IMG/VR virus record: IMGVR_UViG_3300039191_000075
Location: 1-21,313 of that record
Strand: one strand, 5' to 3'
Length of the DNA stretch: 21,313 nucleotides
From: a virus
Position numbers and translations under genes: made by a program. Below are positions 2,065-21,071 of this stretch, in pieces; within the stretch, counting starts at the first letter, position 1; each line of letters begins with the position of its first letter. The notes beneath the pieces were generated by a model. The model was not told where the DNA came from. It saw nothing but the letters and a program-made list of their open reading frames with translations, and searched no databases.

Positions 2065-2156
2065 GAAAAAGATGTCTTAATGATAAAGAAAGGTGGCAGC
2101 AATGGAGCTACGTAATAAAACTTGGAGTAGCAGGAATGGACGATGCTAGTTTATGA
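2061..2156 (+). pseudogene. 31-codon ORF carrying a duplicated uvsY C-terminus
   Basis: The ORF starts at the ATGA overlap with the hydrolase stop and ends at an ATGA overlap with the next gene. Residues 19-31 are VIKLGVAGMDDASL-like, matching the last residues of UvsY (IKLRVAGMEDASL) at 11 of 13 positions. At DNA level 35 of 42 bases match 1408-1449, with most differences in third positions, so the copy comes from a diverged uvsY allele rather than a recent duplication. The first 17 residues (MRKRCLNDKERWQQWSY) are not recognisably UvsY. It is probably a remnant left by gene insertion. It may still be translated as a coupling peptide. Confidence 0.75.
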
Positions 2157-2854: not shown

Positions 2855-3795
2855 TAGGGTTTAAACCGATAATTAAGAAAAAACTCGGACACTTTGGCAA
2901 TGGTGTTAGTGCCATTGGCGATAGCTACGTGTCTACAAACTTCTCAGATAACCGAGAAAAACCAGAGGCGGACTGTTATGTCCAGTTTAACATATATAAT
3001 CCGTACTACAATTACAATAGAGCGGTACAGCCGCAAGCGTTTCAGTACATACTCGATCAGCATAAGCCATTCCTTGTGTGCGAAGAAGGTGCATTTCGTC
3101 AGTTTCCTGAATATAAAAGATTTGGATGGTATAGCTATAAGAACGGCATTGGTATTTTTGATAACGGCGACATAGACAGCAACCGTTGGCAACAGTTTAA
3201 GAAAGACACTGGAATAAGTATTCCTGACTGGAATAGCCCAGGAGAGAACATTTTAATAATGGCCCAGGTTGAAAAAGATAGCGCATTAATAGAAATGTAC
3301 GAAGCAGGATATAACAGCTTTGTAGAATTCGTTATTGAGCAAATCTACACTCTAAGAAAATATACCGACCGACCGATAGTAATACGGCCTCACCCTAGGA
3401 CAGTTTATAGTCTTGGTACTGCTATTGAGACCTTGCATAATATAAAAAACGTATCTGTTAGTAAGAACTTTTCTTGTGATTCAGAGAACTCGCTCAACGG
3501 TGGTTCAGGGCTACAAACTGACTTAGACTCCGCTTACTGTGTAGTTACCTACAGTAGCAATAGTGGAGTAGAAGCTGTTTGTCAAGGCATACCAACATTT
3601 GCACTAAGTTCTACTTCGTCTATATATGACATTGCACATACTGACCTCTCTTTAATAGAGAATCTTAATTATAACATCGACATAGAGAACTGGTGTAATC
3701 AGATAGCGTATTCTGTATGGAGCCCGAGTGAGCTCGATTCAGGCGAGACGTGGGCTCACCTTAAGGAAGTCTACTATGCCAAAATTAAAAAGTAA
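2845..3795 (+). CDS. KpsC/Kdo-transferase-like glycosyltransferase, paralog 1
   Basis: A 316-residue protein. The C-terminal half has RPIVIRPHPR (176-185), then VVTYSSNSGVEAVCQGIPTF, then an ENW...WSPSEL...GETW tail. This block is typical of the nucleotide-binding half of capsule polysaccharide KpsC/LipA-like transferases with GT-B fold. Three other genes here share the same block (5682, 6485 and 10799), so this is an expanded family. The N-terminal half is unlike the paralogs and may set the acceptor. The start overlaps the GT25 gene. Donor and acceptor are not readable. Confidence 0.65.
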   Translation: MRVVGFKPIIKKKLGHFGNGVSAIGDSYVSTNFSDNREKPEADCYVQFNIYNPYYNYNRAVQPQAFQYILDQHKPFLVCEEGAFRQFPEYKRFGWYSYKNGIGIFDNGDIDSNRWQQFKKDTGISIPDWNSPGENILIMAQVEKDSALIEMYEAGYNSFVEFVIEQIYTLRKYTDRPIVIRPHPRTVYSLGTAIETLHNIKNVSVSKNFSCDSENSLNGGSGLQTDLDSAYCVVTYSSNSGVEAVCQGIPTFALSSTSSIYDIAHTDLSLIENLNYNIDIENWCNQIAYSVWSPSELDSGETWAHLKEVYYAKIKK

Positions 3796-4375
3796 AGAAG
3801 CATTAGATAGGATACTAAAGATTATAGACACAAATTCAATAGTGTTAGATATAGGAGCCGGTGCTGAGCAAATACACGCAAAGGTTTTTAGAAAAAACAG
3901 ACACACTGTAGACACTGTTGATTTTTTTCCAGAATCGACTTATGTAGGAGATTTTAATTTAATAGAGATCAATAAGCAGTACGACGTAGTATGGGCAAGC
4001 CACTGTTTAGAGCATCAGTTGAATGTCAACTTATTTTTAAAGAAGGTGCACTCAGTAGTTAAAAATAACGGATACGCTGTAATTACAGTGCCGCCTCTCA
4101 AACATAAGATTGTGGGAGGCCACGTAAGCCTTTGGAATGCAGGATTATTAATTTATAACCTAGTGTTAGCAGGATTTGATTGTAGTAATATTCAGATAAA
4201 ACAGTACGGATACAACATCAGTGCTATTGTCCAAAAGACAGATAGAAAAATTCCCTTTGAGTTGTTAGAATACGATACTAAAGACCTAGAAACTTTAAAC
4301 CGATTCTTTCCTAAAGATGTTACTTACGAGAAGAACTGTATATTTAATGGCGATATAGAAATCCTAAACTGGTAG
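3776..4375 (+). CDS. class I SAM-dependent methyltransferase
   Basis: A 199-residue protein with motif I VLDIGAGA (23-30), an acidic loop end at VDTVDFF, and the methyltransferase-11/12 signature WASHCLEH (73-80) followed by NNGYAVITVPP. The ATG at 3776 is chosen because AAGGAAG lies a few bases upstream. An earlier in-frame start lies inside the preceding gene and adds an unrelated, low-complexity N-terminus. It overlaps the preceding transferase by 20 bases and is followed 3 bases later by a sulfotransferase. Within a glycan operon the likely target is a sugar hydroxyl or carboxyl (inference), though a nucleic acid or protein target is not excluded. Confidence 0.75.
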   Translation: MPKLKSKEALDRILKIIDTNSIVLDIGAGAEQIHAKVFRKNRHTVDTVDFFPESTYVGDFNLIEINKQYDVVWASHCLEHQLNVNLFLKKVHSVVKNNGYAVITVPPLKHKIVGGHVSLWNAGLLIYNLVLAGFDCSNIQIKQYGYNISAIVQKTDRKIPFELLEYDTKDLETLNRFFPKDVTYEKNCIFNGDIEILNW

Positions 4376-4378
4376 ATT

Positions 4379-4981
4379 ATGAGTCAAGAACACATTAAAT
4401 TAAAATACGGAATCAGTGAGTGGAAAGAATTCTCTCTGAATTTTTGGAATATTCCGAAGTGCGGGTCAACTGCGGTAAAAGCTGCATTGTTAAAGAAACA
4501 CAGCCTATCACCAACAGATGTCAGCCAGCAACTTCATAGTACAGACTTAGCAACTTATATTACTTCTGATCAAGCTCGAATAAATGGGAATTTGAATTTT
4601 GCAGTAATAAGACACCCGCACGACCGTGTTATTTCGATGTATAAAGACTTTGGATTAAGAAGGCCTGTAAAAGGGCATAAAAAGAAACTATTATCTAGCT
4701 TCGATTACTTTCTAGACAAGGTAGTTGTGCCAAGTAAAGACAAAACGTGCAACGTGCATTTTAGAAGCGCAAGCTCTTACATATCACCCGACGGCGTTGT
4801 GTTAGTAGACAGAGTACTAACCTTAGTTACAGTAAAAGAGTTTCTTTACAATCGCGGCATAGATTTTATTAAAGTTAACGCATCTCCGGAACTAGAGATG
4901 CAGCTATCCGATGAGCACAAAGAAAAAATAAAAAGTAGGTACGCGCCTGATTTTATTCTTTGGGCTAATTGCGCTGTATAA
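4379..4981 (+). CDS. sulfotransferase (PAPS-dependent type)
   Basis: A 200-residue protein with both PAPS-binding motifs: the 5'-phosphosulfate loop NIPKCGSTAVKAALL (PKCGST at 26-31) and the 3'-phosphate motif FAVIRHPHDRVISMY (74-88). The family moves sulfate from PAPS to carbohydrate or protein acceptors. It is distinct in sequence from the four minus-strand sulfotransferases at 7418-10731 but has the more canonical P-K-x-G-S-T loop. Its stop codon lies inside a late promoter octamer at 4977-4984 that reads into the next gene. Confidence 0.8.
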   Translation: MSQEHIKLKYGISEWKEFSLNFWNIPKCGSTAVKAALLKKHSLSPTDVSQQLHSTDLATYITSDQARINGNLNFAVIRHPHDRVISMYKDFGLRRPVKGHKKKLLSSFDYFLDKVVVPSKDKTCNVHFRSASSYISPDGVVLVDRVLTLVTVKEFLYNRGIDFIKVNASPELEMQLSDEHKEKIKSRYAPDFILWANCAV

Positions 4982-4984
4982 ATA
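4977..4984 (+). promoter_or_regulatory. T4-type late promoter, TATAAATA
   Basis: Perfect TATAAATA, 20 bases before the ATG at 5004 and overlapping the stop of the sulfotransferase. In T4-like phages this octamer is the late promoter recognised by gp55 sigma. It would let the second half of the plus-strand run (5004-7417) be transcribed late. Confidence 0.6.
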
Positions 4985-5003
4985 AAGAAAATGCGAGGCA
5001 AGA

Positions 5004-5681
5004 ATGATACCAATATTTTTAGGGTACGACCCAAGAGAAGCAATAGTATACCATGTATGCTCAAACAGCATTATTCGCAAAGCAAGCGAACCTGTTAGTC
5101 TTAATCCGCTAGCATTGTCTACTCTAAACAACTACGAAGAAGCACACACAGACGGCAGTAATCATTTTATCTATAGTCGCTTTTTAGTGCCAAGTCTTAT
5201 GGAGTACAACGGCTGGGCAATCTTTATGGACGGCGATATGATCTTACGTGACGACATTGCTAAGCTATGGAAGATGCGTGATGATTCAAAGGCTGTAATG
5301 GTTGTTAAACACGACTACAAAACTAAGATGAAGAAGAAGTATCTTGGTGCTCCAAACGAAGATTACCCTCGCAAGAATTGGTCAAGTGTGATCATGTGGA
5401 ACTGTGCACACCCGGCAAACAAAGTAGTAACGCCAGAGTTTGTACAAAATTCTTCAGGAGCGTATCTCCATAGGTTCTCTTGGCTAGACGAAGACGAAAT
5501 AGGCAACCTGCCTATAGAATGGAATTGGTTGCCGGACGAATTCGGCGAAAACAAAGATGCTAAGCTAGTACACTACACTCTAGGAGCTCCTAGCTTTCAC
5601 GAGTTTGCCACAACGCCAATGGGCGACGAATGGCACCAAGAACGTATTATTACAGAATACTGTCAACAACACGGGTTATAA
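5004..5681 (+). CDS. GT-A fold glycosyltransferase (nucleotide-sugar type)
   Basis: A 225-residue protein. It begins IPIFLGYDPREAIVYHVCSNSI and carries FMDGDMIL (75-81), whose D-G-D is the expected metal and nucleotide-sugar site of GT-A enzymes. This type, loosely related to GT8, is common in marine T4-like phages. GAGG at 4995-4998, 5 bases before the ATG, supports the start. It has its own upstream late promoter and is followed without a gap by a KpsC-like gene. Donor sugar not readable. Confidence 0.7.
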   Translation: MIPIFLGYDPREAIVYHVCSNSIIRKASEPVSLNPLALSTLNNYEEAHTDGSNHFIYSRFLVPSLMEYNGWAIFMDGDMILRDDIAKLWKMRDDSKAVMVVKHDYKTKMKKKYLGAPNEDYPRKNWSSVIMWNCAHPANKVVTPEFVQNSSGAYLHRFSWLDEDEIGNLPIEWNWLPDEFGENKDAKLVHYTLGAPSFHEFATTPMGDEWHQERIITEYCQQHGL

Positions 5682-6488
5682 ATGCTAGCAATAGATCCTA
5701 CCGATAAAATAGTTCAGGCTCTTGCAGTTGGTGCAGATGCAGAGTTTATCAACACATGGCGCGGCCTTAAGTCTCGCACAAGAAACGTTCCGGTAATTTT
5801 CCGCAGTATGACACAACGGAAGACAGTACAGGTGTGTGAAAAACAACAACGAGACTACTTCTATATCGATACCGGCTACATTGGAAATCTCGGAAAGACA
5901 AAGAGATGGCACAGAGTTGTAAAGAACGGAATGCAGCATTCGCAACCGAGGTTTGACCTGCCCAGTGATCGATTTGATGAGATATGTGAGAGAGCTGACT
6001 CTCCTCATATTAAATTTGATGGATGGCAAGAGGAAGGGTCTGCTATTTTATTAGTTACTCCTAGTGAGAAGCCCTGCAAGTTTTATGGTGTAGACAGGGG
6101 CCAGTGGGTTGAGAACACAATAGCAACACTTAGAGAACACACTGACAGAGAAATAATTGTACGAGATAAAGCAGAAAGGCGCGGCGATCGAGTAAGAGAC
6201 AACAGCATCTTTAAACAGTTTGTAGAAGATGATATCTATGCTGTTGTTACCTACAACAGCATAGCAGCAATTGAAGCAATAAGTTTCGGGATTCCTGCGT
6301 TTACAATGGCTCCAACAGCCGCTGATTTGCTGTGCTTAAAAGACGTACAGATGATCGAATCACCATTGCGAGATGATCTAGAAAAAGTAGCATCTTGGCA
6401 AAACTGGTTAGGATACTGTCAGTATTCTACAGCCGAACTTACTAATGGCACTGCACTAAAATTGCAGCAGGAGCTAAATCTATTATGA
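5682..6488 (+). CDS. KpsC-like glycosyltransferase, paralog 2, variant active-site block
   Basis: A 268-residue protein related to the genes at 2845, 6485 and 10799 by AVVTYNSIAAIEAISFGIPAF and a tail with WQNWLGYCQYSTAELTNGTA. The R-P-H-P block of the paralogs is replaced by VRDKAERRGDR (about residues 160-170), so the histidine is lost. This may mark a different subfamily or altered catalysis. The ATG directly follows the previous stop, and its own stop overlaps the next ATG (ATGA). Confidence 0.6.
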   Translation: MLAIDPTDKIVQALAVGADAEFINTWRGLKSRTRNVPVIFRSMTQRKTVQVCEKQQRDYFYIDTGYIGNLGKTKRWHRVVKNGMQHSQPRFDLPSDRFDEICERADSPHIKFDGWQEEGSAILLVTPSEKPCKFYGVDRGQWVENTIATLREHTDREIIVRDKAERRGDRVRDNSIFKQFVEDDIYAVVTYNSIAAIEAISFGIPAFTMAPTAADLLCLKDVQMIESPLRDDLEKVASWQNWLGYCQYSTAELTNGTALKLQQELNLL

Positions 6489-7417
6489 CAATAACAGTAG
6501 CATCTTATCTTAGAGGAATCCCAATAAAAAACACTAGTTCAGAAAAACCTGCAATTATCACAGGATTTGTTGAAGGAGTGTTACGCGCAGGCGACAGCGG
6601 CCGTGTTGTTACTGGATGGCACCCGGTCGACGTTGATGTTGCTGTCGTACAAGGGTTTGTTCATACGAATGGTAAGTGCAGTCCTCACCTTGAACTAAGA
6701 AAGCAGGTGTTCGAACATCAGCAAGCAAGAGGAAAGCGTTCAATAATAGTTGACAGCAATCTCTTCTTGTATGCAGATCCAGGCAATTCAAAAGGGTACC
6801 TGCGTTATAGTTACGACGGTATCTTTCCTAACACAGGTGAATACTGTAATGACAAGTTAATACCTGGTAGATGGGAGAAGATCAGTAGAGATCTAGGAGT
6901 ATCGCTGAAGCCTTGGCAAACAAACGGCAAGCACGTTTTGATATTTTGTCAACGTGACGGTGGCTGGAGTATGGACGGCCTGGCTCTAATGCCTTGGTTA
7001 GTAAAGATAATTAAAAAAGTAAAATCAAGATGCAGTTATCCGATAGTAGTGCGTTTCCATCCTGGCGATAAGGCATCAACTACTCATGCCAGAACGCTTT
7101 TAGCTAGGCGTACTCCAGGAGTAAGGGTTTCAACTAATAGCAATGTACGTGATGATCTTAAACATGCTCACGTAGCAATTAGCTACAATTCAAGTCCTGG
7201 AGTAGTGTCTGCTATTGAAGGTGTGCCTGTTATTGTGTTAGACCCAGCTCGCAGTCAAGCCGCAGAGGTAGCAGCACATAACCTTAATAGTCTAGAAGAG
7301 CCTCTAACGTTTGAGAGAGATGTATGGGTTCGACGAATGGCACAGATGCATTGGACTATAGAAGAGATAAGAGATGGCACCGCCTGGAAGCACCTAAGAA
7401 AATACGCTTACAAATAA
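6485..7417 (+). CDS. KpsC-like glycosyltransferase, paralog 3
   Basis: A 310-residue protein. The C-terminal half has YPIVVRFHPGD (RFHP in place of RPHP), AHVAISYNSSPGVVSAIEGVPVIV, and a tail WTIEEIRDGTAWKHL matching the tails of paralogs 1, 2 and 4. It is coupled to the previous gene by ATGA and is the last gene of the plus-strand run. Its stop abuts the stop of the opposing minus-strand gene with no gap and no visible terminator hairpin. Presumed sugar transfer during glycan assembly. Confidence 0.62.
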   Translation: MTITVASYLRGIPIKNTSSEKPAIITGFVEGVLRAGDSGRVVTGWHPVDVDVAVVQGFVHTNGKCSPHLELRKQVFEHQQARGKRSIIVDSNLFLYADPGNSKGYLRYSYDGIFPNTGEYCNDKLIPGRWEKISRDLGVSLKPWQTNGKHVLIFCQRDGGWSMDGLALMPWLVKIIKKVKSRCSYPIVVRFHPGDKASTTHARTLLARRTPGVRVSTNSNVRDDLKHAHVAISYNSSPGVVSAIEGVPVIVLDPARSQAAEVAAHNLNSLEEPLTFERDVWVRRMAQMHWTIEEIRDGTAWKHLRKYAYK

Positions 7418-7831
7418 TCAGTAACCTAAGAAGTCAAAATCGTGTTTGAAAACATGCTCTATGATTTTCCTAGAACTAAGCGTCATCTCAACATTTACAT
7501 TTTGATACTTTGTATTTTCATGTGGCAGCGGGTTGAAATAACCTAGCTGTTCTTGAATTGTAGCAAAATCCTTTTGTACGTTCTCAACTTTAATTATCGA
7601 ATCTACCTTAACATTTCCCGGATAACCGTTATCAGTGAGCCAGTATATCTGATTGGTTTTAAACTTGTATTCTGGGCTGAAATCAAGGTCTTTAATAGGA
7701 GTGTGCATCCTATGATAATCAACTGAGTCGCCGTAGATGTCTTCGTACCACCGCCGTACACTTGTACCTGCCGACTTAGGTACATGTACAAACACGCTGC
7801 TCTGATTGGCGTCAGTAACCGAATACGTCAT
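7418..7831 (-). CDS. shortened sulfotransferase paralog (internal deletion)
   Basis: A 137-residue protein with the PAPS loop VFVHVPKSAGTSVRRWY (PKSAGTS at 18-24) and a C-terminal part FKTNQIYWLTDN...IIEHVFKHDFDFLGY that closely follows the gene at 10018-10731. The middle of the family, including the 3'-phosphate motif (VVRNPYSRAVSWY in the paralog), is missing at about residue 50. About 100 residues are gone without breaking the frame. It is therefore probably inactive or altered, although it stays in frame and coupled: its ATG directly follows the stop of the upstream transferase. Confidence 0.7.
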   Translation of the reverse strand: MTYSVTDANQSSVFVHVPKSAGTSVRRWYEDIYGDSVDYHRMHTPIKDLDFSPEYKFKTNQIYWLTDNGYPGNVKVDSIIKVENVQKDFATIQEQLGYFNPLPHENTKYQNVNVEMTLSSRKIIEHVFKHDFDFLGY

Positions 7832-8680
7832 TTAGATCTTCTGTTGCCAGTAATCCAATCCGTGGTCTACAATAACATCGCTGGCTTTTGAACGGCCTTG
7901 ATGCTTACGATCTCCTTTTAAATGGTCAATCCATTGACCTAGTACACAATTGATTAACGGATGTCCGCCACCGCCTGTCTTGGCTGTTCGTATGTACATG
8001 TCTGCAGAATAGTCAAGAACGTTAGAGTGCTTAACGTTCTTGCGTTTTAGTATGTCGCCGAACACGTAACTGTCGTGCCATTCGTCAAGAGTGAAGATAC
8101 CATTTTCTGCATCTTCGTAAAACTGTTCAAGCTCTTGTAGGAATTCTTGACAGGCCACGTTCTTTACATTCAACCCGTAAAATCCACACTCGGGCCAAGT
8201 CTGTGCAGCCTTGCCTCGTCCAACGTATGTGAGCCATTTATTGTTCGGCAGCAGGGCGTTAAACTCTTCGTAGCTCCACGGAGAGTGCACAAAGGTATCA
8301 GCGTCAATCCATACACACCAATCACTTGAGCGGTTACAGGCATCTAGTACAGCGTAGATCTTATTTGCAAATCTGACTGCATCCCACTTGAAAGCCTTGT
8401 TACTGTCCCTGCGCCTACTTCTTACAGGATCTTGAGATATGTCGCCATTGGCTTTGGGGACATTGCCCCACCTGTTCTTAAACTGACTGAGCTTGCGTAA
8501 CACCTTTGCATCGAATATTGTGATGTTCTCTGGGCTGGGATTAACAGGTGAACAGTCCTCAGCATAAACCAATAACTTGATACGCTTGTCAACGTTTTCA
8601 GCAAAACTGTCTAGAAAACGCTGACCGTATAGATCTAATCCAGGCTTATGAAAAGTAGTGACTAGTGTGATGTCTTTCAT
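7832..8680 (-). CDS. putative GT-A-like glycosyltransferase
   Basis: A 282-residue protein starting MKDITLVTTFHKPGLDLYG, with CVWIDADTFV (122-131) whose D-A-D is a typical GT-A metal site, and a later HDSYVF/GGGGHPLINCVLG region. Proteins of this type occur in marine T4-like phages as unnamed sugar transferases. It sits in the middle of the sulfotransferase array, with the shortened paralog after it and the two loop-variant paralogs before it, 2 bases from its neighbour. Role in the same glycan pathway is inferred from position. Confidence 0.6.
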   Translation of the reverse strand: MKDITLVTTFHKPGLDLYGQRFLDSFAENVDKRIKLLVYAEDCSPVNPSPENITIFDAKVLRKLSQFKNRWGNVPKANGDISQDPVRSRRRDSNKAFKWDAVRFANKIYAVLDACNRSSDWCVWIDADTFVHSPWSYEEFNALLPNNKWLTYVGRGKAAQTWPECGFYGLNVKNVACQEFLQELEQFYEDAENGIFTLDEWHDSYVFGDILKRKNVKHSNVLDYSADMYIRTAKTGGGGHPLINCVLGQWIDHLKGDRKHQGRSKASDVIVDHGLDYWQQKI

Positions 8681-8682
8681 AA

Positions 8683-9348
8683 TTAGTAGTTAAACTTCTC
8701 AAAGTCGTTGGCAAATACTTCTTCGATAATCGCACGTGACTTTTTTGACATTCTAAAGTTGTTAGTCCTAAGCTCTTTTTCTGCGCCTGTGTACAACTGA
8801 ATGCCGTCATCAATACCGGTTGCTTGCTGGACTTGAGCAAACTCTTCATCAAAGTTTTCAAACCTGATGATGTAGTCGATTTTATCACCTGGTACTGTGT
8901 CGGTTGAGTCGTTGCTTAACCATTGACATTGTGTAAAAGTGAACTTATGACGTGCACCCGACCAGCCGCCTTTGTCAACGTCTTTGCCCATAAGAAAAGA
9001 TGCTTCTTGATAGAACTGACTAAGCCATGCGTCAAACCCCTTTTCCCAAACCGAAAGTTCAAACGCAGCCTTTGGGTTTTTCTTTTCTAGACCACGCAGT
9101 ACTCCGCCGTGGAAGTTATACCAACCAATTGCACGATCATATGGATTTCTTACTATAGACCATGTAACGTAATTCGACATATCGAAGCCGGTGTTCATGT
9201 ACTCGTAGTTTGCTGAAAACGGCGCATCCATCTCCTCGTAGTTGTTCTTGTACCAATAAAATATGTTTGGTGATTCAGCACCGACAACAGTGATATACGC
9301 ACTGTCTTTGATGCCGTCTTTGTCGTTGTTTGTACCGAGGTAACTCAT
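8683..9348 (-). CDS. sulfotransferase paralog with degenerate PAPS loop (copy 1)
   Basis: A 221-residue protein. It keeps the 3'-phosphate motif SIVRNPYDRAIGWY (64-77), the WEKGFDAWL and QCQWLSND regions and the family tail EVFANDFEKFNY. Where the paralog at 10018 has HITKCAGSSV, this one has VVGAESPNIFYWY (21-33), without the P-K-x-G-S/T loop lysine. Its nearest relative is the adjacent gene at 9361. GGAGAAGAG lies just upstream of the ATG. It may be a non-catalytic or neofunctionalised sulfotransferase-fold protein. Confidence 0.68.
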   Translation of the reverse strand: MSYLGTNNDKDGIKDSAYITVVGAESPNIFYWYKNNYEEMDAPFSANYEYMNTGFDMSNYVTWSIVRNPYDRAIGWYNFHGGVLRGLEKKNPKAAFELSVWEKGFDAWLSQFYQEASFLMGKDVDKGGWSGARHKFTFTQCQWLSNDSTDTVPGDKIDYIIRFENFDEEFAQVQQATGIDDGIQLYTGAEKELRTNNFRMSKKSRAIIEEVFANDFEKFNY

Positions 9349-9360
9349 TTCTCTTCTCCG

Positions 9361-10014
9361 TTAATAATTGAAATATTCAAAATCGCTTGCAAATATTTCT
9401 TCAATGATTTTCTTAGAGCCCGACGTCATTCCGAAGTCGTCTCCCCTTAATGAAAAGTCTGTAGAGTCGTAGATGTTAACATCTTCAGTTATTCCTAAGA
9501 TTTCTTTTATCTCAGGAAGCTCTTTATCAAACTCTTCAAATTTTACAATCTTGTCAATACAAGGTTTAGAACGACTCAAATCGTTAGTAAACCACTGACA
9601 CTGATTAAAAACAAATGCAAATCGTTCAGTAGTGTGCCCTGTGTCGTCTATTAAGCTATCAATGATATAGTTTGCTGAATATGCAAAGTGTCTAAGCCAA
9701 ACATCAAACCCTTTCCTCCACATTGAAAACTCAAACTCGACTATAGGGTTAATAACACTGTGATACCTCAAGAACACCCCATATAGGTAATACCATCCAA
9801 CTGCTCTATCATACGGGTTCCTTACAAGTCCCCAAGTAAAACAGTCGTTTGATATAGCTGGCTTTAGAAAATCATACGGTGCAAATGTGTATGAATCGCA
9901 GTTAGGATAATTTTCTAAGTACCAATGAAACAAGTTAATAGGACCGGCACCCGGCGCGACTATGAGTGCACTTTCGCGTAGATTGCTGTTTGTTGCCCAG
10001 CCTATACATGCCAT
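9361..10014 (-). CDS. sulfotransferase paralog with degenerate PAPS loop (copy 2)
   Basis: A 217-residue protein. The 3'-phosphate motif GLVRNPYDRAVGWY (62-75) and the FVFNQCQWFTND block are present, with tail EIFASDFEYFNY. The 5' loop reads APGAGPINLFHWY (20-32), glycine-rich but again without the conserved lysine. It shares the altered pattern (…NLFHWY / …NIFYWY) with the gene at 8683, so the change predates their duplication. It is part of the minus-strand run, 3 bases after the canonical paralog. Activity uncertain. Confidence 0.68.
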   Translation of the reverse strand: MACIGWATNSNLRESALIVAPGAGPINLFHWYLENYPNCDSYTFAPYDFLKPAISNDCFTWGLVRNPYDRAVGWYYLYGVFLRYHSVINPIVEFEFSMWRKGFDVWLRHFAYSANYIIDSLIDDTGHTTERFAFVFNQCQWFTNDLSRSKPCIDKIVKFEEFDKELPEIKEILGITEDVNIYDSTDFSLRGDDFGMTSGSKKIIEEIFASDFEYFNY

Positions 10015-10017
10015 GTG

Positions 10018-10731
10018 TTAATATCCCAAACGCTCGAAGTCGTCCTTAAAGATATGTTCGATAGCTCTTTTAGACTTCTTGTTTAGCGTTACCTTCTTTG
10101 ATATCAAAGTTTTATTTACAAATTCTAAATCTCGTGTTGTATTTAACAAATTTTTAATCGTTTGAAAGCCACTGTCGAGGTTTTCTACGCGCACAATGTG
10201 ATCTATACACAGCTTGTTATTGCTGTCAGTTAGCCAGTACGTTTGGTTAGTTTTAAAGTGATACCACATAGGGTCTACAGTTGACCTGGCACTTTGCCTA
10301 GGATCCAGCGATGCAGTGTCTGCGTATCGCTGAATCCAATAGTCAAAGCCTTTCTCCCACGCTTTTATTTCTACAGGATCGATCTCAAAGTCTCTCTGAT
10401 CAACAGTCCTGTCCAGCTGTGGAAACTGATACAGTACATAGTCTCGACCGTATTGTTTTTCTTGTTCCTTGAACGTTTGGGCCAGCTTCATCATATGTCC
10501 GTGATACCGGTACCAGCTCACTGCCCTACTGTAGGGATTTCTTACAACTGTCCACGTCATGTAGTTACTGCAATCGTAATTTTCTAAAAAGTACGACACC
10601 GGACGATGTGGAAGAAAGTCTGCATGTTTGGGTGAGTATCGCTGGTGATAGAAATTTGTCACACTAGATCCAGCGCATTTAGTGATGTGAATAAAGATGT
10701 GTTTCGGATCCTTGTGGACTATTATCGACAT
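10018..10731 (-). CDS. sulfotransferase, canonical member of the minus-strand paralog set
   Basis: A 237-residue protein with PAPS loop IFIHITKCAGSSVTNFY (TKCAGSS at 17-23) and 3'-phosphate motif TVVRNPYSRAVSWY (61-74), followed by FKTNQTYWLTD and tail HIFKDDFERLGY. This is the only member of the four-gene array with both motifs intact. It is first in the minus-strand run, after a divergent promoter region, with AAAGGA before the ATG. Probable substrate: a sugar hydroxyl in the glycan made by the neighbouring transferases (inference). Confidence 0.78.
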   Translation of the reverse strand: MSIIVHKDPKHIFIHITKCAGSSVTNFYHQRYSPKHADFLPHRPVSYFLENYDCSNYMTWTVVRNPYSRAVSWYRYHGHMMKLAQTFKEQEKQYGRDYVLYQFPQLDRTVDQRDFEIDPVEIKAWEKGFDYWIQRYADTASLDPRQSARSTVDPMWYHFKTNQTYWLTDSNNKLCIDHIVRVENLDSGFQTIKNLLNTTRDLEFVNKTLISKKVTLNKKSKRAIEHIFKDDFERLGY

Positions 10732-10751
10732 TGTGTATCCTTTCGTTTGAT

Positions 10752-10759
10752 GTATTTAA
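10752..10759 (-). promoter_or_regulatory. possible late promoter for the minus-strand run (CTTAAATA)
   Basis: On the minus strand the octamer is CTTAAATA, matching 6 of 8 bases of TATAAATA. It ends about 20 bases before the ATG of the 10018-10731 gene, the same spacing as the better octamers in this window. Confidence 0.35.
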
Positions 10760-10773
10760 GAGAGATCACAAAC

Positions 10774-10781
10774 CATAAATA
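10774..10781 (+). promoter_or_regulatory. T4-type late promoter, CATAAATA
   Basis: CATAAATA 18 bases before the ATG at 10799. It lies in the 67-base divergent gap and faces the plus-strand transferase. A four-codon ORF (MEPL) starts at 10788 and its TGA overlaps the gene start. Confidence 0.5.
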
Positions 10782-10798
10782 CTCGATATGGAACCACT

Positions 10799-11644
10799 AT
10801 GAAATTCAGCCTATGGACTGAGTATGGCGCTCGCAATAGCCATCCTGTATTCAAAGCAATGACAGAAGCTATTATCCGTCTAGGTCACACTTACGAAGAA
10901 AATGACAGAGACTGTGACGTTGACGTAATATGGAGCGTTCTATGGGCAGGTCGAATGGCTCCTAATAAAGCAATCTACAACAACGGTAAACCTACAATAG
11001 TCTTAGAAGTCGGTGGCATTCAGCGCAATCAAACTTGGAAAGTTGGCCTCAATGGTATTGACCGTGCGCACTTAATGACTTCGCACGGTAATGATGGTGC
11101 AAGGGCTCATATGCTAGGGCTGGAGTTAACGTCATGGTCAACTGTTGATGATTACATATTGGTATGCTGTCAGAACCCAAAAAGTGATAACTGGCTAGGC
11201 ATGCCAACTGCAGAGTGGGCTAGAAACACTGTAGAGACTATTCGTATGCACTCAGACAGGCCCATCGTAATACGCCCGCATCCTAGAGCTCCGTTTAGAG
11301 CAGTACTACCACCTAGTTACAATGCAACTATTCAACACCCTGCCAAAGTGTTAGGCACTTACGATGACTTTGACTTGACATTTAAACATGCTCATGCTGT
11401 GGTGAGTTGGAGTTCGAATCCTGGGCCTCAAGCAATTGTCGCAGGAGTGCCTGCATTTGTGGGACCTAAAAGTCTTGCATGGGACGTTGCTAACCACAAT
11501 TTGAACACAATAGAAACACCTACCAAACCTGACAGAACTCAATGGCTTAACGACTACGCACACACAGAATACACCACAGACGAAGTAGCCCAAGGCAAGC
11601 CTTTGAAATATTTGATAAATCACTTGACACACACCAAAAGTTAA
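10799..11644 (+). CDS. KpsC-like glycosyltransferase, paralog 4
   Basis: A 281-residue protein with ILVCCQNPKSDNW, RPIVIRPHPR (intact block), AHAVVSWSSNPGPQAIVAGVPAF and a tail YTTDEVAQGKPLKYL, the same order as paralogs 1-3. The N-terminus (MKFSLWTEYGARNSHPVFKA) differs from the others. It is transcribed alone from the divergent promoter region. Its end carries the -35 box of a sigma-70-like promoter for the next operon. Likely the right edge of the glycan island. Confidence 0.62.
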   Translation: MKFSLWTEYGARNSHPVFKAMTEAIIRLGHTYEENDRDCDVDVIWSVLWAGRMAPNKAIYNNGKPTIVLEVGGIQRNQTWKVGLNGIDRAHLMTSHGNDGARAHMLGLELTSWSTVDDYILVCCQNPKSDNWLGMPTAEWARNTVETIRMHSDRPIVIRPHPRAPFRAVLPPSYNATIQHPAKVLGTYDDFDLTFKHAHAVVSWSSNPGPQAIVAGVPAFVGPKSLAWDVANHNLNTIETPTKPDRTQWLNDYAHTEYTTDEVAQGKPLKYLINHLTHTKS

Positions 11645-11684: not shown

Positions 11685-12992
11685 ATGAGTGTATATTCTG
11701 TTGAACACATCTTAAGAATGCTGGTAGGCCTTGACAATTCCAAGGGCCATTTTACTATTCCTGCTGGCGACAGGCCTGTAATCAGCAGCATCGCAAAACA
11801 GGTAACCCGTGGCACCGGCCTTACAGAACGTCAGCACGATCTTGTCAAGAGCAAACTGCTAGGCGTGCATTATGTCACGCAGTTTTACCGTCAAGGTGTT
11901 ACTCCCCACGAGTATGAAAAAGCTCTAGCAACAACTGATCTGCCTCTAAGAGAGATTGATCGAACTATGTCTATTGAACTTATAAACTCAATTGCTGACG
12001 AAGACATTAGCCAGTTCCTGGCGCAGCGATACGAAGATCGACTTAACTCGCCGTGGGTCAAAGTAACGTTTCCATTTAGTAAACGCATCATAACACTACT
12101 TGACAGTGTCAAAGAACACACCCAAGAAGTTATTCATTCGTCTGGTTCAAATAGCCAGTACTTCAAGTTCAACGAACGTATTGTATTCATGCTTCTAAAA
12201 ATATTTGAAGGCGAAGGCTTTGAGGTCGACAACGAGCTAACCGAGTATCTCAAAAAACTTGAGACCATAACCAAAAACAAGACTGCATATCTTCCCTACG
12301 CAAAAGAAGGTGTAGTGGAAAATCTGCATCCCGAAGCTCAATCAATTCTTGAGAGCAAGTTAGGCAAGCCTTCTGTCGAGAACTTCTTTCAGTACAAAGA
12401 CCGTTCTGTTCTATTTGATATTAGGTATTTCGACGAAGAACTGTTAGAGCAGTCAACAGAGAGATGTTCATCGCTTACAAAGAGGTTAATCAAACGTGAG
12501 TCAGTGCAGGTGCTAACAAGCCCAGCAGACTACACTATTGAAGAGATTGTAGAGTCGCTGATTGAGCTCAAGAGGTTCCCAGTGATGTGCATAGTGACTA
12601 ATCCTGACTCAGTAAGGGCTGTGTACAAAATACTTAAACACTGCACCTCTAATAACGAAGTAAGTGTGCTGTTTAGAATGGACAACGTCGTTGACCCAGA
12701 CTTCAACAAGTTTGTGAAAGACAACGAACTGAACTCGCCTGTGACTGATCACACAAAGGTTGTGTTTGTGTCAAAAGACAAACTTCCTAAGCCGTTGGTC
12801 AAGAGTGGCTGGTACCCAGAAGCTATTCTTCGAGTAGGCAGCACCCGCGTTCAGACTAAGATCGATCAGTGGACAACAGACTGCGATCTAGTAGTTCACT
12901 ATGACACTGTGGCATCGCCTTGGGTAAACCCGCACAGTAACAACGTTAGAAAAAGCAAGAAAAGGATTGTTGAAAAACTATATGGCGTGTAG
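11685..12992 (+). CDS. conserved phage protein of unknown function upstream of uvsW
   Basis: A 435-residue protein beginning MSVYSVEHILRML, with a Gly-Thr-Gly-Leu-Thr-Glu-Arg-Gln stretch near residues 48-55 that recalls large uncharacterised proteins of marine T4-like phages. I see no Walker, zinc or nuclease motif, no signal peptide and no membrane segment. The second half alternates beta-strand-like hydrophobic runs (FPVMCIVTNPDS, VSVLFRMDN, HTKVVFVSK), suggesting alpha/beta domains perhaps related to a helicase or nucleotide-binding fold without its catalytic motifs. Its end overlaps the uvsW start by 11 bases, so a function with UvsW is plausible but inferred. Confidence 0.7.
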   Translation: MSVYSVEHILRMLVGLDNSKGHFTIPAGDRPVISSIAKQVTRGTGLTERQHDLVKSKLLGVHYVTQFYRQGVTPHEYEKALATTDLPLREIDRTMSIELINSIADEDISQFLAQRYEDRLNSPWVKVTFPFSKRIITLLDSVKEHTQEVIHSSGSNSQYFKFNERIVFMLLKIFEGEGFEVDNELTEYLKKLETITKNKTAYLPYAKEGVVENLHPEAQSILESKLGKPSVENFFQYKDRSVLFDIRYFDEELLEQSTERCSSLTKRLIKRESVQVLTSPADYTIEEIVESLIELKRFPVMCIVTNPDSVRAVYKILKHCTSNNEVSVLFRMDNVVDPDFNKFVKDNELNSPVTDHTKVVFVSKDKLPKPLVKSGWYPEAILRVGSTRVQTKIDQWTTDCDLVVHYDTVASPWVNPHSNNVRKSKKRIVEKLYGV

Positions 12993-14004
12993 ACTAATAA
13001 TACAAGACGAAGTAAACATAAAACTAGAAGGGCTGCCTGTTGACATTCGACGCAAATGTGCAAGCGCCTTAAAGTACGAAGTTCCTTATGCTAGACACAT
13101 GCCTCAATACAAACTGGGCAGGTGGGACGGCAAAGTCGGGTTTTTTGGAATCGGCGGCAGCGGTTACTTAAATCACCTCGACAGGGTTATCGAAGTTCTC
13201 CAAAAGAACGGAATTGAAATAGATGACATAGTTGACAACCGTGAAGTTTACAGTTTCAACTTTCCTAAGGTTACAGAAGAATTTTGGGGAGATACCTGTT
13301 GGTCAAAGGGACACCCAGCAGAAGGGGAGCCCATTCGACTTCGCGACTATCAAGTAGAAGTCATCCAAAACTTTGTTAACAATCCTCAAGCATTACAAGA
13401 AGTTGCAACAGGCGCTGGTAAGACAATTATCACAGCTACATTATCGAAGCTAACCGAGCCGTATGGTCGCAGTCTTGTTGTAGTGCCTAACAAGAGCCTA
13501 GTTAGTCAAACAGAAGAAGACTATGTAAACTGTGGTCTTGATGTAGGCGTGTACTTTGGCGATAGAAAAGAACTTGGTGCGACACATACTATCTGCACAT
13601 GGCAGTCACTAAATGTCCTCGACAAGAAACACAAAGACGGATCGGGTGTACTGAGCCTTGCTGAGTTCCTAGAAGGCGTATCTACTATCATTATAGATGA
13701 GTGTCTTGACGGCGACACATTAGTTACAACTCCAACAGGGAAAGTTGCTATAAAGCACTTAGAGGTCAATGACGTAATAATTAACTTATGCGAAGAAACA
13801 AACACATATAAAGAAGACGTTATAGTTAAAGTACATAAAAATCTGTCAAACAGTGACTCTGAGAATATGCTAGAGTTAGAGTTTGACAACGGTAGTGCTA
13901 TTAAAGTAACAGCCAACCATAAGTTTTTAACTAACAAAGGCTGGGTAAGAGCAGACCAGCTAACTGATGATCTAGATATTATTGACATAAATACATACGG
14001 CTAA
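12982..14004 (+). CDS. uvsW: UvsW helicase N-half fused to N-intein
   Basis: UvsW is an SF2 helicase that unwinds R-loops and branched DNA in T4 and helps move replication from origins to recombination. Residues 1-240 are the N-extein: an N-terminal domain (LGRWDGKVGFFG), motif Q/I with Walker A ATGAGKT (Lys147), and the start of motif II, IIIDE. Residues 241-340 are a 100-aa N-intein that starts with Cys241 (CLDGDTLVTTP, block A) and holds block B (VTANHKF), then stops. The protein therefore lacks motifs III-VI and must be joined to the product of 14913-15755. ATG 12982 is chosen over upstream TTG codons because it aligns with UvsW starts. Confidence 0.85.
   Translation: MACRLIIQDEVNIKLEGLPVDIRRKCASALKYEVPYARHMPQYKLGRWDGKVGFFGIGGSGYLNHLDRVIEVLQKNGIEIDDIVDNREVYSFNFPKVTEEFWGDTCWSKGHPAEGEPIRLRDYQVEVIQNFVNNPQALQEVATGAGKTIITATLSKLTEPYGRSLVVVPNKSLVSQTEEDYVNCGLDVGVYFGDRKELGATHTICTWQSLNVLDKKHKDGSGVLSLAEFLEGVSTIIIDECLDGDTLVTTPTGKVAIKHLEVNDVIINLCEETNTYKEDVIVKVHKNLSNSDSENMLELEFDNGSAIKVTANHKFLTNKGWVRADQLTDDLDIIDINTYG
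13702..14001 (+). other. N-intein (IntN), 100 residues
   Basis: It begins with Cys1 and CLDGDTLVTTP (block A), and has LELEFDNGSAIKVTANHKF (block B with the T-x-x-H pattern). The end, DIIDINTYG, is where natural split inteins such as cyanobacterial DnaE IntN (about 102 aa) also stop. Length and motif order match functional trans-splicing inteins. Confidence 0.88.
13986..13993 (+). promoter_or_regulatory. T4-type late promoter inside IntN, CATAAATA
   Basis: CATAAATA within the last N-intein codons, 25 bases before the endonuclease ATG. The spacing is similar to other late octamers here. It would transcribe the endonuclease and the C-half of uvsW late, apart from the N-half. Confidence 0.5.
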
Positions 14005-14017
14005 AGGAGAAGTGTTT

Positions 14018-14926
14018 ATGGCAAAGAGTTTTGATATTGACAAGTTTAATAGAATTCTAAAGAGTTTTGCCCAAACGGTATGCGCAGAGAGTATATCGGT
14101 AAACGAAATAAGATTATCTAACGGAGTAACTATGACCACCAAGCGAGACATTCGCTTGTGTAAAAAAAGAGTAATGTCCGGCCATGCTGTATGGAAGGAA
14201 GAGTTTGACAGTTTGTATAGCACCGATATTACTGTTAGATTGCTTGCTGAAAAAACAGCAAGAGCAGTTACTTCAAAGAACGGTGGCATATCTTGTCAAG
14301 CAAAACACAGCAATAAGATAAAGGAAAACCTAAATAACGGAACACCTTGGAATAAAGGAATGAAAGGCAACTACCCTTATTCGTTGCCGGTGTCAGACGG
14401 AACTAAGAAAAAAATTAGTCTAGCAAATCAGGGCATCAAAAACGGAATGTACGGAAGTACAATGTCGTTAGCTGATCGGCAGCATCGTAGTAAAATAATG
14501 AAAGAAAAGATCTTAGCTGGAACATTTACTCCGAACTCTAATAACAGAAACACTCATTGGGATTCTTGGTACAGCGGCAAAATGTACAGGAGCTCGTGGG
14601 AAGCATTGTACCAATATTTCGACCAAGACGCAGAATACGAAACCGTACGCATCCCGTATACATTTAACGACATTGACTGCGTGTACATAGTTGACTTCGT
14701 TAATCATAGCAAACGACAGTTAATTGAAGTAAAACCTGCGGAATTGTTACATGACAAAAAGACCAAAGCAAAGCTAGCGGCAGCAGCCTCGTGGAGCAAA
14801 CAAAACAATTATGTATTCATAATCGCAGATAAGGATTTTCTCATCGCAAAAGGAGTTCCTGAGAGTTTAGAAAATTTCGACGCTAGTACACAAAACAAAA
14901 TTAGGAAGTTATATGAAATTAGTTAA
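14018..14926 (+). CDS. free-standing homing endonuclease, NUMOD3 plus PD-(D/E)xK/EDxHD-type domain
   Basis: A 302-residue protein. The middle has two NUMOD3-like DNA-binding repeats: NGTPWNKGMKG (107-117) and NGMYGSTMSLADRQHRSKI (142-160). The C-terminal nuclease-like domain has YRSSWE (Glu195), VYIVDF (Asp226) and LIEVKP (Glu237, Lys239), a pattern of Vsr-like EDxHD or PD-(D/E)xK homing nucleases. The start is ATG 14018, 8 bases after AAAGGAG, which overlaps the IntN stop. The end overlaps the C-intein start by 14 bases. It would be expected to cut intein-free uvsW alleles near the DECH codons (inference). Confidence 0.78.
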   Translation: MAKSFDIDKFNRILKSFAQTVCAESISVNEIRLSNGVTMTTKRDIRLCKKRVMSGHAVWKEEFDSLYSTDITVRLLAEKTARAVTSKNGGISCQAKHSNKIKENLNNGTPWNKGMKGNYPYSLPVSDGTKKKISLANQGIKNGMYGSTMSLADRQHRSKIMKEKILAGTFTPNSNNRNTHWDSWYSGKMYRSSWEALYQYFDQDAEYETVRIPYTFNDIDCVYIVDFVNHSKRQLIEVKPAELLHDKKTKAKLAAAASWSKQNNYVFIIADKDFLIAKGVPESLENFDASTQNKIRKLYEIS

Positions 14927-15017
14927 GAAGACAGTTATTAACAAGCCAGAAACTGTGTACAACTTACACGTTAAGAATGATCACAATTACATTGCTAATG
15001 ATACAGTTGTAGCAAAT
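14913..15017 (+). other. C-intein (IntC), 35 residues
   Basis: Starts at its own ATG, has block F (VYNLHVKNDHNYIA) and block G (TVVAN followed by Cys). Length equals that of DnaE-type IntC (about 35-36 aa). Confidence 0.88.
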
Positions 15018-15755
15018 TGCCACCAAGCAAAGGCAGAAGTGCTCAAACGAATTCTAACACAGAATCTTAAGAATGCACCTATCCGTTGGGGCCTAACTGG
15101 TACTGTACCTAAGGAAGCATTTGAGTTTGAAAGCATTCATGCTAGTCTTGGTCCTGTGATTGGCAAAATAAGTGCAAAAGAGTTACAAGACAAAGGCGTT
15201 CTGTCAAAGTGTCATGTAAATGTATTGCAGCTAATGGACGTTCAGGTGTTCCGCGATTACCAGTCAGAACTAAAGTACCTTGTGTCTGATCCCGACAGGA
15301 TTGCCTATATTGCATCAGTAATGAATCAAGTCAAGCAGTCAGGTAACACGCTTATCCTAGTTGACAGGATATCAGCAGGCGAGATGTTGCAAGAACTAAT
15401 TCCAGGCAGCACATTCATCTCTGGGTCGGTAAAAGCCAATGACCGAAAAGAAACTTATGATACAATTCGAGAAGGAACAAACGAAGTAATCATTGCCACA
15501 TACGGTGTAGCAGCCGTTGGTCTTAATATTCCTCGTATATTCAACCTTGTGCTACTAGAGCCAGGCAAGAGTTTTGTGCGAGTAATACAGTCTATTGGAC
15601 GTGGCGTTCGTAAAGCAAAAGACAAGGACTTTGTGCAGATATGGGATCTCACATCAACTTGTAAGTTTGCTAAGCGACACCTTAGAGAACGAAAGAAGTT
15701 TTATAAAAACGCAGAATACCCCTTCACTATAGAAAAAGTGGACTGGACAAAATAG
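14913..15755 (+). CDS. uvsW: C-intein fused to UvsW helicase C-half
   Basis: Residues 1-35 are the C-intein: ETVYNLHVKNDHNYIANDTVVAN covers blocks F and G and ends in the essential Asn35. The penultimate residue is Ala, not His, as also in cyanobacterial DnaE inteins. Cys36 is the +1 nucleophile and begins the extein CHQAKAEVLKR. The helicase part then has LTGT (61-64, motif III-like), EVIIATYGVAAVGLNIP (motif V region) and QSIGRGVRK (226-234, motif VI), as in T4 UvsW. The spliced product would be about 485 residues, near the T4 length. AGGAAG 5 bases upstream supports ATG 14913. Confidence 0.87.
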   Translation: MKLVKKTVINKPETVYNLHVKNDHNYIANDTVVANCHQAKAEVLKRILTQNLKNAPIRWGLTGTVPKEAFEFESIHASLGPVIGKISAKELQDKGVLSKCHVNVLQLMDVQVFRDYQSELKYLVSDPDRIAYIASVMNQVKQSGNTLILVDRISAGEMLQELIPGSTFISGSVKANDRKETYDTIREGTNEVIIATYGVAAVGLNIPRIFNLVLLEPGKSFVRVIQSIGRGVRKAKDKDFVQIWDLTSTCKFAKRHLRERKKFYKNAEYPFTIEKVDWTK

Positions 15756-15775
15756 GATACATAAGGAGAACTAAA

Positions 15776-16282
15776 ATTCGTATTTTAACCCTAGATAACG
15801 AATGTTTCAAGCTAGACAAGTTGCCAGATGAACTGGAAGACGATGTACGTTTTGCAGTGTTAGACAATTCGGACCCCAAGAACCCAGACTTCTTTTGGAT
15901 CCCATTGATCTTTCTAGAATCTTTTAGCTCACCGGCAGTTGTGCTAAAAATAGGCAATCGAGAAATCACAATGCCAGTTGACTGGAGCATGGCTATTGGT
16001 TGCTCAGAAACAGGCAACGACATCGAAGTGTTACCACTTACAAGTTTAAATGACAGAGGCTTTGAAGCATTCTTAATGAATCCGCTAAACGGATTCAGAG
16101 CAGAGTTTGTTGAAGTCGAACTGGTAAACTTTTATTCAGACGTCAAATGGTACTTCCCTAAGATGAAGAACGGACATTTGTTAGCAGTTCCGATAAGCGA
16201 CAGTCCGGAACCTCTGTGTGCATACTTTGTAAAAGATATCAGCAGACAGTGTGAAATTATCAAATACTCAGGATTGATGTAG
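15776..16282 (+). CDS. conserved phage protein with a probable ATT start
   Basis: The frame is open upstream of the first usual start codon (TTG 15821) back to an ATT at 15776 that lies 7 bases after a strong AAGGAG (15763-15768). Initiation there would give a 168-residue protein starting (M)RILTLDNECFKLDKLP, which reads like a natural N-terminus. Starting at TTG 15821 (153 aa) would leave that ribosome site unused. The protein is acidic, with SFSSPAVVLKIGNREITMPVDWSMAIG in the middle, and ends shortly before the next gene. Function unknown; of the type of conserved uncharacterised proteins in marine T4-like phages. Confidence 0.7.
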   Translation: MRILTLDNECFKLDKLPDELEDDVRFAVLDNSDPKNPDFFWIPLIFLESFSSPAVVLKIGNREITMPVDWSMAIGCSETGNDIEVLPLTSLNDRGFEAFLMNPLNGFRAEFVEVELVNFYSDVKWYFPKMKNGHLLAVPISDSPEPLCAYFVKDISRQCEIIKYSGLM

Positions 16283-20213: not shown

Positions 20214-20279
20214 ATGAGCGCAGTTGCCGATACAACCTTAACATACCTACCAGCGAAACGCAAGACCACTCCTAGTGGT
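20214..20279 (+). pseudogene. 5' remnant of a diverged primase (gp61) gene
   Basis: The first 22 codons, MSAVADTTLTYLPAKRKTTPSG, align with the start of the intact primase at 21072 (MSIVSDVSIAYYTQGSKVKTTPSG), with 11 identities and a 2-residue gap. After SG the similarity stops and the frame runs into the endonuclease. The copy is too diverged for a fresh duplication, so it probably came from another phage allele. Confidence 0.72.
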
Positions 20280-20297
20280 GTATTTTCTTACTTTATG

Positions 20298-20305
20298 TAT
20301 AAATA
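20298..20305 (+). promoter_or_regulatory. T4-type late promoter for the GIY-YIG gene, TATAAATA
   Basis: Perfect TATAAATA, 23 bases before the endonuclease ATG at 20328, with AAGGAG (20312-20317) between them. Confidence 0.6.
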
Positions 20306-20327
20306 CACAACAAGGAGCATTAAAGGT

Positions 20328-21071
20328 ATGTTTTATTTATATGTAAAAACTCATAAAAAAACTGGATTAAAATATTTAGGGCAAACATCTAGAGATCCGT
20401 ATGTTTATAAAGGATCTGGATTAAGGTGGACCAATCATATTAAAAAGCACGGTTACGATGTTGATACTTTAATATTATTAGAAACAACAGATAAAGTTGC
20501 ATTATCAGAAGCAGGACTGTATTATAGTAATTTGTATAATGTTGTAAATGATTATAATTGGGCAAATATAGTTGCAGAATCAGGAACAGGCGGCGATACT
20601 TCTAAAAGTCCTAATTTTATTGAATCCATGAAGCACCGAGATTTTTCGTACAGACAAGATCTAAAGTATAAAGAAAAAGTATCTATAGCAGTAAAAAAAT
20701 ATTGGAACACTAGATTTGAAGATCCCTCTTTTAATAAAGAAGAATATAAAAAGATGTGTTCTGAAAGAAGTAAATCTATGTGGGAATCTCGAGGTATTAC
20801 AGACGAAGATAGGATATTACGTTCAAAAAGACAAACAGAATATTTAAATACTCCGGGAGTTAAGGAATCATTATCACAAAAAGCTAAAGCAGCCTGGCTT
20901 AAAAAGTCAAAAACGTATGAAGTAACATTTCCAAACGGCCATACAGAAGTTGTAAAATCATTTAGAGGATGGTGCAAGGATAATAATTATCCTTATTATA
21001 AACTGTATAATACTATTAGAAATAACAAGCCGTCAAAAGATGGATGGCAAGTGCGGATAATTGAGGATTAA
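20328..21071 (+). CDS. GIY-YIG homing endonuclease (Seg-like)
   Basis: A 247-residue protein. The N-terminus FYLYVKTHKKTGLKYLGQT (2-20) is a GIY-YIG variant (YLY…KYLGQT), followed by YKGSGLRWTNHIKKHG and a candidate catalytic Glu61 (SEAGLYYSNLYNV). The middle is lysine- and arginine-rich. The end, TEVVKSFRGWCKDNNYPYYKLYNTIR, looks like a modular DNA-binding helix-turn-helix. The true start is ATG 20328 after AAGGAG; the longer frame from 20214 only reads through the primase remnant. Base composition is visibly more AT-rich than the neighbours, as in imported endonuclease genes. It lies directly before the primase gene, its probable homing site. Confidence 0.82.
   Translation: MFYLYVKTHKKTGLKYLGQTSRDPYVYKGSGLRWTNHIKKHGYDVDTLILLETTDKVALSEAGLYYSNLYNVVNDYNWANIVAESGTGGDTSKSPNFIESMKHRDFSYRQDLKYKEKVSIAVKKYWNTRFEDPSFNKEEYKKMCSERSKSMWESRGITDEDRILRSKRQTEYLNTPGVKESLSQKAKAAWLKKSKTYEVTFPNGHTEVVKSFRGWCKDNNYPYYKLYNTIRNNKPSKDGWQVRIIED

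What the first reader, a model, noticed from the sequence alone, without database searches (positions are those of the whole stretch)
12982..15755. uvsW is a fractured gene: split intein in the DECH box flanking a free-standing endonuclease
The helicase is coded by two separate ORFs. The first ends in a 100-aa N-intein beginning CLDGDTLV right after IIIDE; the second begins with a 35-aa C-intein ending VVAN, followed by CHQAKAEV. Joining them rebuilds IIIDECHQA, motif II of this SF2 helicase, without a scar. Both halves keep the splicing blocks A, B, F and G, and no helicase motif is missing. Fractured genes of this kind are known for other phage proteins in marine metagenomes; I do not know of one in UvsW at motif II, so the insertion site may be new. 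Neither half alone can be an active ATPase.
Basis: partly seen in the sequence, partly recalled or inferred. Interest (0 to 1): 0.92.

Follow-up and report, generated by a model that had tools for sequence, protein, structure and literature searches.

The report
Mobile split intein breaking phage helicase
A phage DNA-repair helicase gene is cut in two by a self-joining protein element with its own DNA-cutting enzyme; the same element sits in many related phages, appears to have moved between phages recently, and seems to bring with it the cysteine it needs to join the two halves.

Summary
Confirmed: UvsW is coded by two ORFs with a split intein (IntN 100 aa, IntC 35 aa) at motif II (IIIDE|CHQA) around a separate endonuclease gene: a fractured gene, a known kind. 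The site is not new in databases: S16-type Salmonella phages and Proteus phage PM2 carry the same array, unannotated as an intein, and 82 fetched loci hold it. I found no open paper describing it; the founding paper could not be read.

The parts
12982..13701 (+). UvsW N-extein, 240 aa, with Walker A GAGKT at 13411-13425 and ending at IIIDE
13702..14004 (+). IntN, 100 aa and stop; block A CLDGDTLV, block B VTANHKF
   Evidence: TIGR01445 1.3e-10; C1 and TxxH in 51/51 unique homologues
13986..13993 (+). Late-promoter-like element CATAAATA in front of the endonuclease gene
   Evidence: 39/41 endonuclease-bearing cassettes against 1/13 without; occurs in all three frames
14005..14009 (+). Ribosome-binding site AGGAG for the endonuclease, directly after the IntN stop
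14018..14926 (+). Free-standing endonuclease, 302 aa: NUMOD3-like region and TnsA-like PD-(D/E)XK domain (E195, D226, E237-x-K239 invariant in 37 homologues)
   Evidence: Pfam TnsA-like_N 6.5e-7; A7; model pLDDT 87; TnsA 1t0f Z 8.6
14903..14908 (+). Ribosome-binding site AGGAAG for IntC-UvsW-C, inside the endonuclease 3' end; genes overlap by 14 nt
14913..15017 (+). IntC, 35 aa, blocks F and G, ending VVAN
   Evidence: TIGR01443 9e-5; terminal Asn in 51/51
15018..15020 (+). Cys+1 codon TGC; Val (GTN) in intein-free relatives
15018..15755 (+). UvsW C-extein, 245 aa and stop, with motif III LTGT and motif VI QSIGRGVRK
13675..15019 (.). Tract identical to L020: the 1316-nt cassette plus 27 nt upstream and 2 nt downstream; flanks 74-83% identical

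Best explanation
This is a fractured uvsW: a mobile cassette (IntN, TnsA-like homing endonuclease, IntC) in helicase motif II. How it most likely works: the two uvsW ORFs are translated apart, IntN and IntC associate and splice in trans by the ordinary Cys1/Asn/Cys+1 route, giving a 485-aa UvsW. The endonuclease is made from its own late promoter, cuts intein-free uvsW of a co-infecting phage near motif II, and repair from the cassette-bearing copy transfers the whole unit. Because intein-free alleles mostly encode DEVH, at least the first two bases after the cassette (TG of the Cys codon) must be co-converted for splicing to work, so the element in effect carries its own nucleophile. Shown by sequence: anatomy, conserved splicing residues, purifying selection, recent transfer of the whole unit, Val/Cys association, promoter-like element, repeated endonuclease loss. 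Inferred: splicing, cleavage, the order of events, and function of the promoter.
For: Intein models and conserved residues; gapless junction and match to T4 UvsW. Cassette 1316/1316 nt identical to L020 with 74-83% flanks, and other pairs with 96-100% identical intein parts in about 68-78% identical exteins; intein 55-57% against extein 27-31.5% identity to S16/PM2. On a UvsW tree of 222 rows the filled/empty state changes 24 times (16 forced by starred branches) and Cys goes with the intein in about 15.4 of 16 independent pairs, never the other way (p about 6e-5); 55/55 filled are Cys against 162 Val, 2 Ala, 2 Cys, 1 Thr empty. Downstream identity tract is exactly 2 nt. Late-promoter-like element 39/41 against 1/13 (non-redundant 34/37 against 1/11, Fisher 4.5e-7). 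Endonuclease fold and active site.
Against: Nothing was tested at the bench. The penultimate residue is Ala; most homologues have Ser or Ala, so it may be tolerated, but efficiency is unknown. The window is a 21-kb fragment, so an intact second uvsW elsewhere cannot be excluded. The UvsW tree of 222 rows is a FastTree tree of one 239-column piece. Contigs are metagenomic; chimeric joins at a shared 1.3-kb repeat are possible, although both flanks of L020 differ from the window and two contigs (window and L009) hold the window's version.
Confidence: 0.9

Rival explanations
1. A group I or II intron interrupts uvsW and the apparent intein halves are chance reading frames.
For: Homing endonucleases of similar make-up also sit in introns; the endonuclease has a weak group I intron endonuclease hit, E 0.0073.
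Against: No Rfam match up to E 1 in 12600-16100; intein models hit both halves; C1, TxxH, Asn and Cys+1 in 51/51 unique homologues; dN/dS 0.03-0.16 in both halves.
Confidence: 0.02
2. Gene in pieces without splicing: the two polypeptides act together as a two-chain helicase, as reported for a phage ribonucleotide reductase split by an endonuclease gene.
For: Free-standing endonucleases can split genes that still work as two chains (cited in PMC10448857).
Against: Both splicing halves are strongly conserved with every needed residue, which a two-chain enzyme would not require; contiguous intein forms exist at the same site.
Confidence: 0.03
3. The Cys existed first: alleles mutated from DEVH to DECH and only those were then invaded; the cassette does not bring the Cys.
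For: T4 UvsW is natively DECH; two intein-free DECH alleles are known here, Atu_ph07 and L235; at another helicase site a +1 residue unfit for splicing makes invasion rare (PMC10643990).
Against: Intein-free DECH is 2 of 167 non-redundant, yet at least 16 changes of state are forced on the tree and Cys goes with nearly all of them; window and L020 share exactly TG after the cassette, then differ.
Confidence: 0.15
4. Assembly artefact: the shared cassette joined unrelated flanks.
For: All close relatives are metagenomic contigs.
Against: The same array is in isolate genomes S16 and PM2; L009 repeats the window over about 6 kb with two differences; frames stay intact on both sides.
Confidence: 0.02

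Closest known systems
Fractured genes (Dassa et al. 2009, NAR 37:2560; content recalled, text not held)
   Same: Conserved DNA-metabolism enzyme broken by a split intein with a free-standing endonuclease gene between the halves, mainly in phages
   Different: Here the endonuclease is TnsA-like rather than of the Vsr-related family named there; host gene UvsW at motif II; own late-promoter-like element quantified; whether that paper lists UvsW could not be checked
Salmonella phage S16 / STP4-a and Proteus phage PM2 uvsW locus (NC_020416, NC_026607, NC_055727)
   Same: Same gene order, same insertion residue, intein parts 55-57% identical, homologous endonuclease
   Different: Exteins only 27-31.5% identical; penultimate His; endonuclease has E-x-R where the others have E-x-K; not annotated as intein
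Split terL of Pseudomonas phage PspYZU05 and phoH of Campylobacter phage CPt10
   Same: Homologous TnsA-like endonuclease; break also at a Walker B DE|C
   Different: Other host proteins; the terL intein has a short IntN and long IntC
Split intein with HNH endonuclease in DNA polymerase B of phage MIJ3 (PMC6892783)
   Same: Fractured phage gene with an endonuclease ORF between intein halves
   Different: HNH endonuclease, other gene, other intein (block A begins with Ser)
Haloarchaeal MCM-d intein (PMC10643990)
   Same: Invasion of alleles with a +1 residue that cannot splice needs co-conversion of that residue
   Different: Contiguous intein; co-conversion rare there, whereas here nearly all intein-free relatives carry the unfit Val

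Membership tests
Fractured gene (split intein with free-standing endonuclease) | Conserved enzyme coded by two ORFs ending and beginning at one extein junction | tested here: met
Fractured gene (split intein with free-standing endonuclease) | IntN and IntC with splicing blocks A, B, F, G | tested here: met
   penultimate His absent (Ala)
Fractured gene (split intein with free-standing endonuclease) | Separate endonuclease gene between the halves | tested here: met
Fractured gene (split intein with free-standing endonuclease) | Halves ligate in trans | not testable with these tools
   needs co-expression
UvsW helicase | Sequence match to T4 UvsW over both parts with SF2 motifs I, II, III, VI | tested here: met
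   2oca/1rif matches; phrog_16 DNA helicase
TnsA-like PD-(D/E)XK nuclease | Catalytic E, D, E-x-K in a TnsA fold | tested here: met
   Pfam PF08722 6.5e-7, over cut-off; E195, D226, E237, K239 invariant; TnsA Z 8.6 over 121 residues
Homing endonuclease | Cuts the intein-free allele near the insertion site | not testable with these tools
   only the transfer footprint is seen
Vsr-related EDxHD homing endonuclease | Vsr-type fold and EDxHD active site | tested here: inconclusive
   Vsr Z 5.8 and I-Bth0305I Z 5.3, below TnsA Z 8.6; active site reads as E, D, E-x-K

The most novel reading that the evidence does not exclude
A self-contained mobile split-intein cassette, with its own late promoter and TnsA-like endonuclease, repeatedly invades helicases that lack the residue needed for splicing and brings that cysteine along; in some phages a second, differently split intein at Walker A leaves UvsW as three polypeptides that must be joined by two separate trans-splicing reactions; and split inteins without endonuclease, and even contiguous mini-inteins, arise from it by endonuclease loss and re-fusion.
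Probability: 0.7. Interest if true: 0.75.

Novelty: new member of a known kind. Interest (0 to 1): 0.6.

Why it matters
One site now offers dozens of natural split inteins in every stage: with endonuclease, without, and re-fused. This makes the origin and fate of split inteins, a debated matter, testable by comparison and at the bench. It also shows that an intein can spread widely through hosts whose resident residue cannot splice, provided two bases of flank travel with it. The inteins are candidate tools for protein ligation, and the loci in three pieces offer natural pairs that should not cross-react.

Tried and rejected
Group I/II intron: no Rfam match up to E 1. Sequence search of the endonuclease against solved structures gave only chance matches; fold search was needed. 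Cellular genomes: the IntN profile found only three distant cyanobacterial matches at 28-31% identity, so no cellular reservoir was found. A literature search for an intein in UvsW at this site, for a TnsA-like endonuclease in inteins, and for genes with two natural split inteins found nothing in the open library; the founding paper is not held, so absence there is not shown. The idea that penultimate Ala marks a dead intein was dropped because nearly all homologues have Ser or Ala there.

Full report
Observation. Three overlapping or adjacent + strand ORFs lie at 12982-14004, 14018-14926 and 14913-15755. The first is UvsW-N plus a 100-aa IntN, the third a 35-aa IntC plus UvsW-C. NCBIfam intein models hit both (TIGR01445 1.3e-10, TIGR01443 9e-5, both over cut-off). 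Both parts match T4 UvsW, and the joined 485-aa chain aligns to intact UvsW of phage Phosso (56%) and Atu_ph07 (54%) with no gap at IIIDE|CHQA. No RNA family matches the region.

The site is already in the databases. tblastn finds the endonuclease and the IntN in Salmonella phages of the S16 type and in Proteus phage PM2, where the annotation reads helicase, hypothetical protein, helicase. Translation shows the same break, NDE|CFDGDT...AHN|CHLA. PHROG families 16259 and 9690 cover extein plus intein half. These records do not annotate an intein there, and no paper in the open library describes it.

Survey. A profile of IntN found 109 relatives in IMG/VR, of which 80 were fetched. They sit in UvsW at the same residue. 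Of 51 unique inteins (82 loci, isolates included), 40 are split around the endonuclease, 8 are split without it and 3 are contiguous. C1, the block B TxxH, the last Asn and Cys+1 are present in 51 of 51; the penultimate residue is mostly Ser or Ala. Purifying selection acts on IntN, endonuclease and IntC.

Mobility. IntN and IntC are 55-57% identical to those of S16/PM2 while the exteins are only 27-31.5% identical. The clearest case is L020: all 1316 nt of the cassette are identical to the window while the uvsW flanks are 73.6, 83.0 and 77.2% identical; the identical tract is 13675-15019, that is 27 nt upstream and 2 nt downstream. Several other pairs show near-identical inteins in about 68-78% identical exteins. 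The window's closest UvsW relatives apart from its own copies are intein-free.

The +1 residue. Intein-free relatives read DEVH. After removal of near-copies there are 162 Val, 2 Ala, 2 Cys and 1 Thr among empty alleles, and 55 Cys of 55 among filled ones. On a UvsW C-extein tree built without that column the filled/empty state changes 24 times, 16 forced by starred branches, and Cys follows the intein in about 15.4 of 16 independent pairs, p about 6e-5. The two shared bases after the cassette in window and L020 are TG, the minimum to turn GTN into a Cys codon. I infer that the cassette brings its nucleophile by co-conversion. A precedent exists for one haloarchaeal intein, where it is rare (PMC10643990). 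So the splice junction keeps length but changes one residue in this clade; in T4 DECH is native.

The endonuclease. Pfam gives a TnsA-like N-terminal domain (6.5e-7) and a weak NUMOD3 motif. In 37 homologues E195, D226, E237 and K239 are invariant. The model (pLDDT 87, pTM 0.55) matches TnsA best (Foldseek 6.3e-3; Z 8.6 over 121 residues); Vsr and I-Bth0305I follow at Z 5.8 and 5.3. Relatives of this enzyme lie in split terL and phoH inteins, also at Walker B DE|C.

Expression. ATAAATA, the core of a T4-type late promoter (recalled), lies just before the endonuclease start in 39 of 41 cassettes with endonuclease and 1 of 13 without; background is 0.01 per 91 nt and 3 of 334 windows in the gene body. 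Non-redundant (including the phoH locus): 34/37 against 1/11, p 4.5e-7, and the motif falls in all three frames of IntN, so protein constraint does not explain it. IntC starts inside the endonuclease 3' end, which carries its ribosome-binding site.

Loss and re-fusion. Split inteins without endonuclease need at least 6 changes on the intein tree and 8 on the extein tree; contiguous forms need 2. Most of those without endonuclease still hold its 3' tail in front of IntC. In contiguous L064 the linker matches the endonuclease 3' end at 28 of 36 bases, against 19 at the 99.9% point of random places, so this mini-intein was once split. This is direct evidence for split to contiguous change; the direction for L040/L043 is less certain.

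Three pieces. L020, L036 with L011 (same contig), L074/L078, L077, L090 and L098 have a further break at Walker A (GAGK|C) by an intein with a 27-39-aa IntN and, where the locus was parsed, a 133-135-aa IntC ending HHN|T; in L020, L074/L078, L077 and L090 an endonuclease ORF lies between, with Vsr/DUF559-like signal clear only in L090. UvsW there is coded in three parts that need two trans-splicing reactions. L044 has the Walker A break together with a contiguous intein at DECH. L058 and L096 carry a contiguous intein at Walker A that I read as LAGLIDADG type from sequence alone. The window lacks this second break (Walker A intact).

Limits. Splicing, cleavage and promoter use are inferred. 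The fetched loci are capped and chosen by similarity, so counts are not frequencies. The window is a fragment of a virus.

Noticed in passing
window 20214-21071 (+): Second homing-endonuclease candidate, GIY-YIG-like by eye, phrog_314 E 2.4e-6, with ATAAATA at 20299.
   Followed up: no
window 11685-12992 (+): 435-aa ORF directly upstream of uvsW without Pfam or PHROG match; similar ORFs lie next to uvsW in L009, L010 and L020.
   Followed up: partly
L020 1538-5945; L036, L074, L077, L078, L090, L098: UvsW in three pieces: a second, differently split intein at Walker A in addition to the motif II intein.
   Followed up: yes
L058 and L096: Contiguous large intein at Walker A, LAGLIDADG type by eye, in the same gene that bears the motif II split intein.
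   Followed up: partly
L003 4475-5350, L004 2785-3660: S16 and PM2 endonucleases have E-x-R where all 37 IMG/VR relatives and the window have E-x-K; possibly impaired.
   Followed up: no
L005 2288-2887, L006 2398-3519: The same endonuclease family sits in split inteins at the Walker B DE|C of TerL and PhoH.
   Followed up: partly
L222 and L235: Rare intein-free alleles with DETH and DECH among DEVH relatives; possible traces of intein loss or point mutation.
   Followed up: partly
window 2153-11644: Long run of glycosyltransferase- and sulfotransferase-like ORFs by eye, some on the minus strand (7418-10731), between uvsX/uvsY and uvsW.
   Followed up: no
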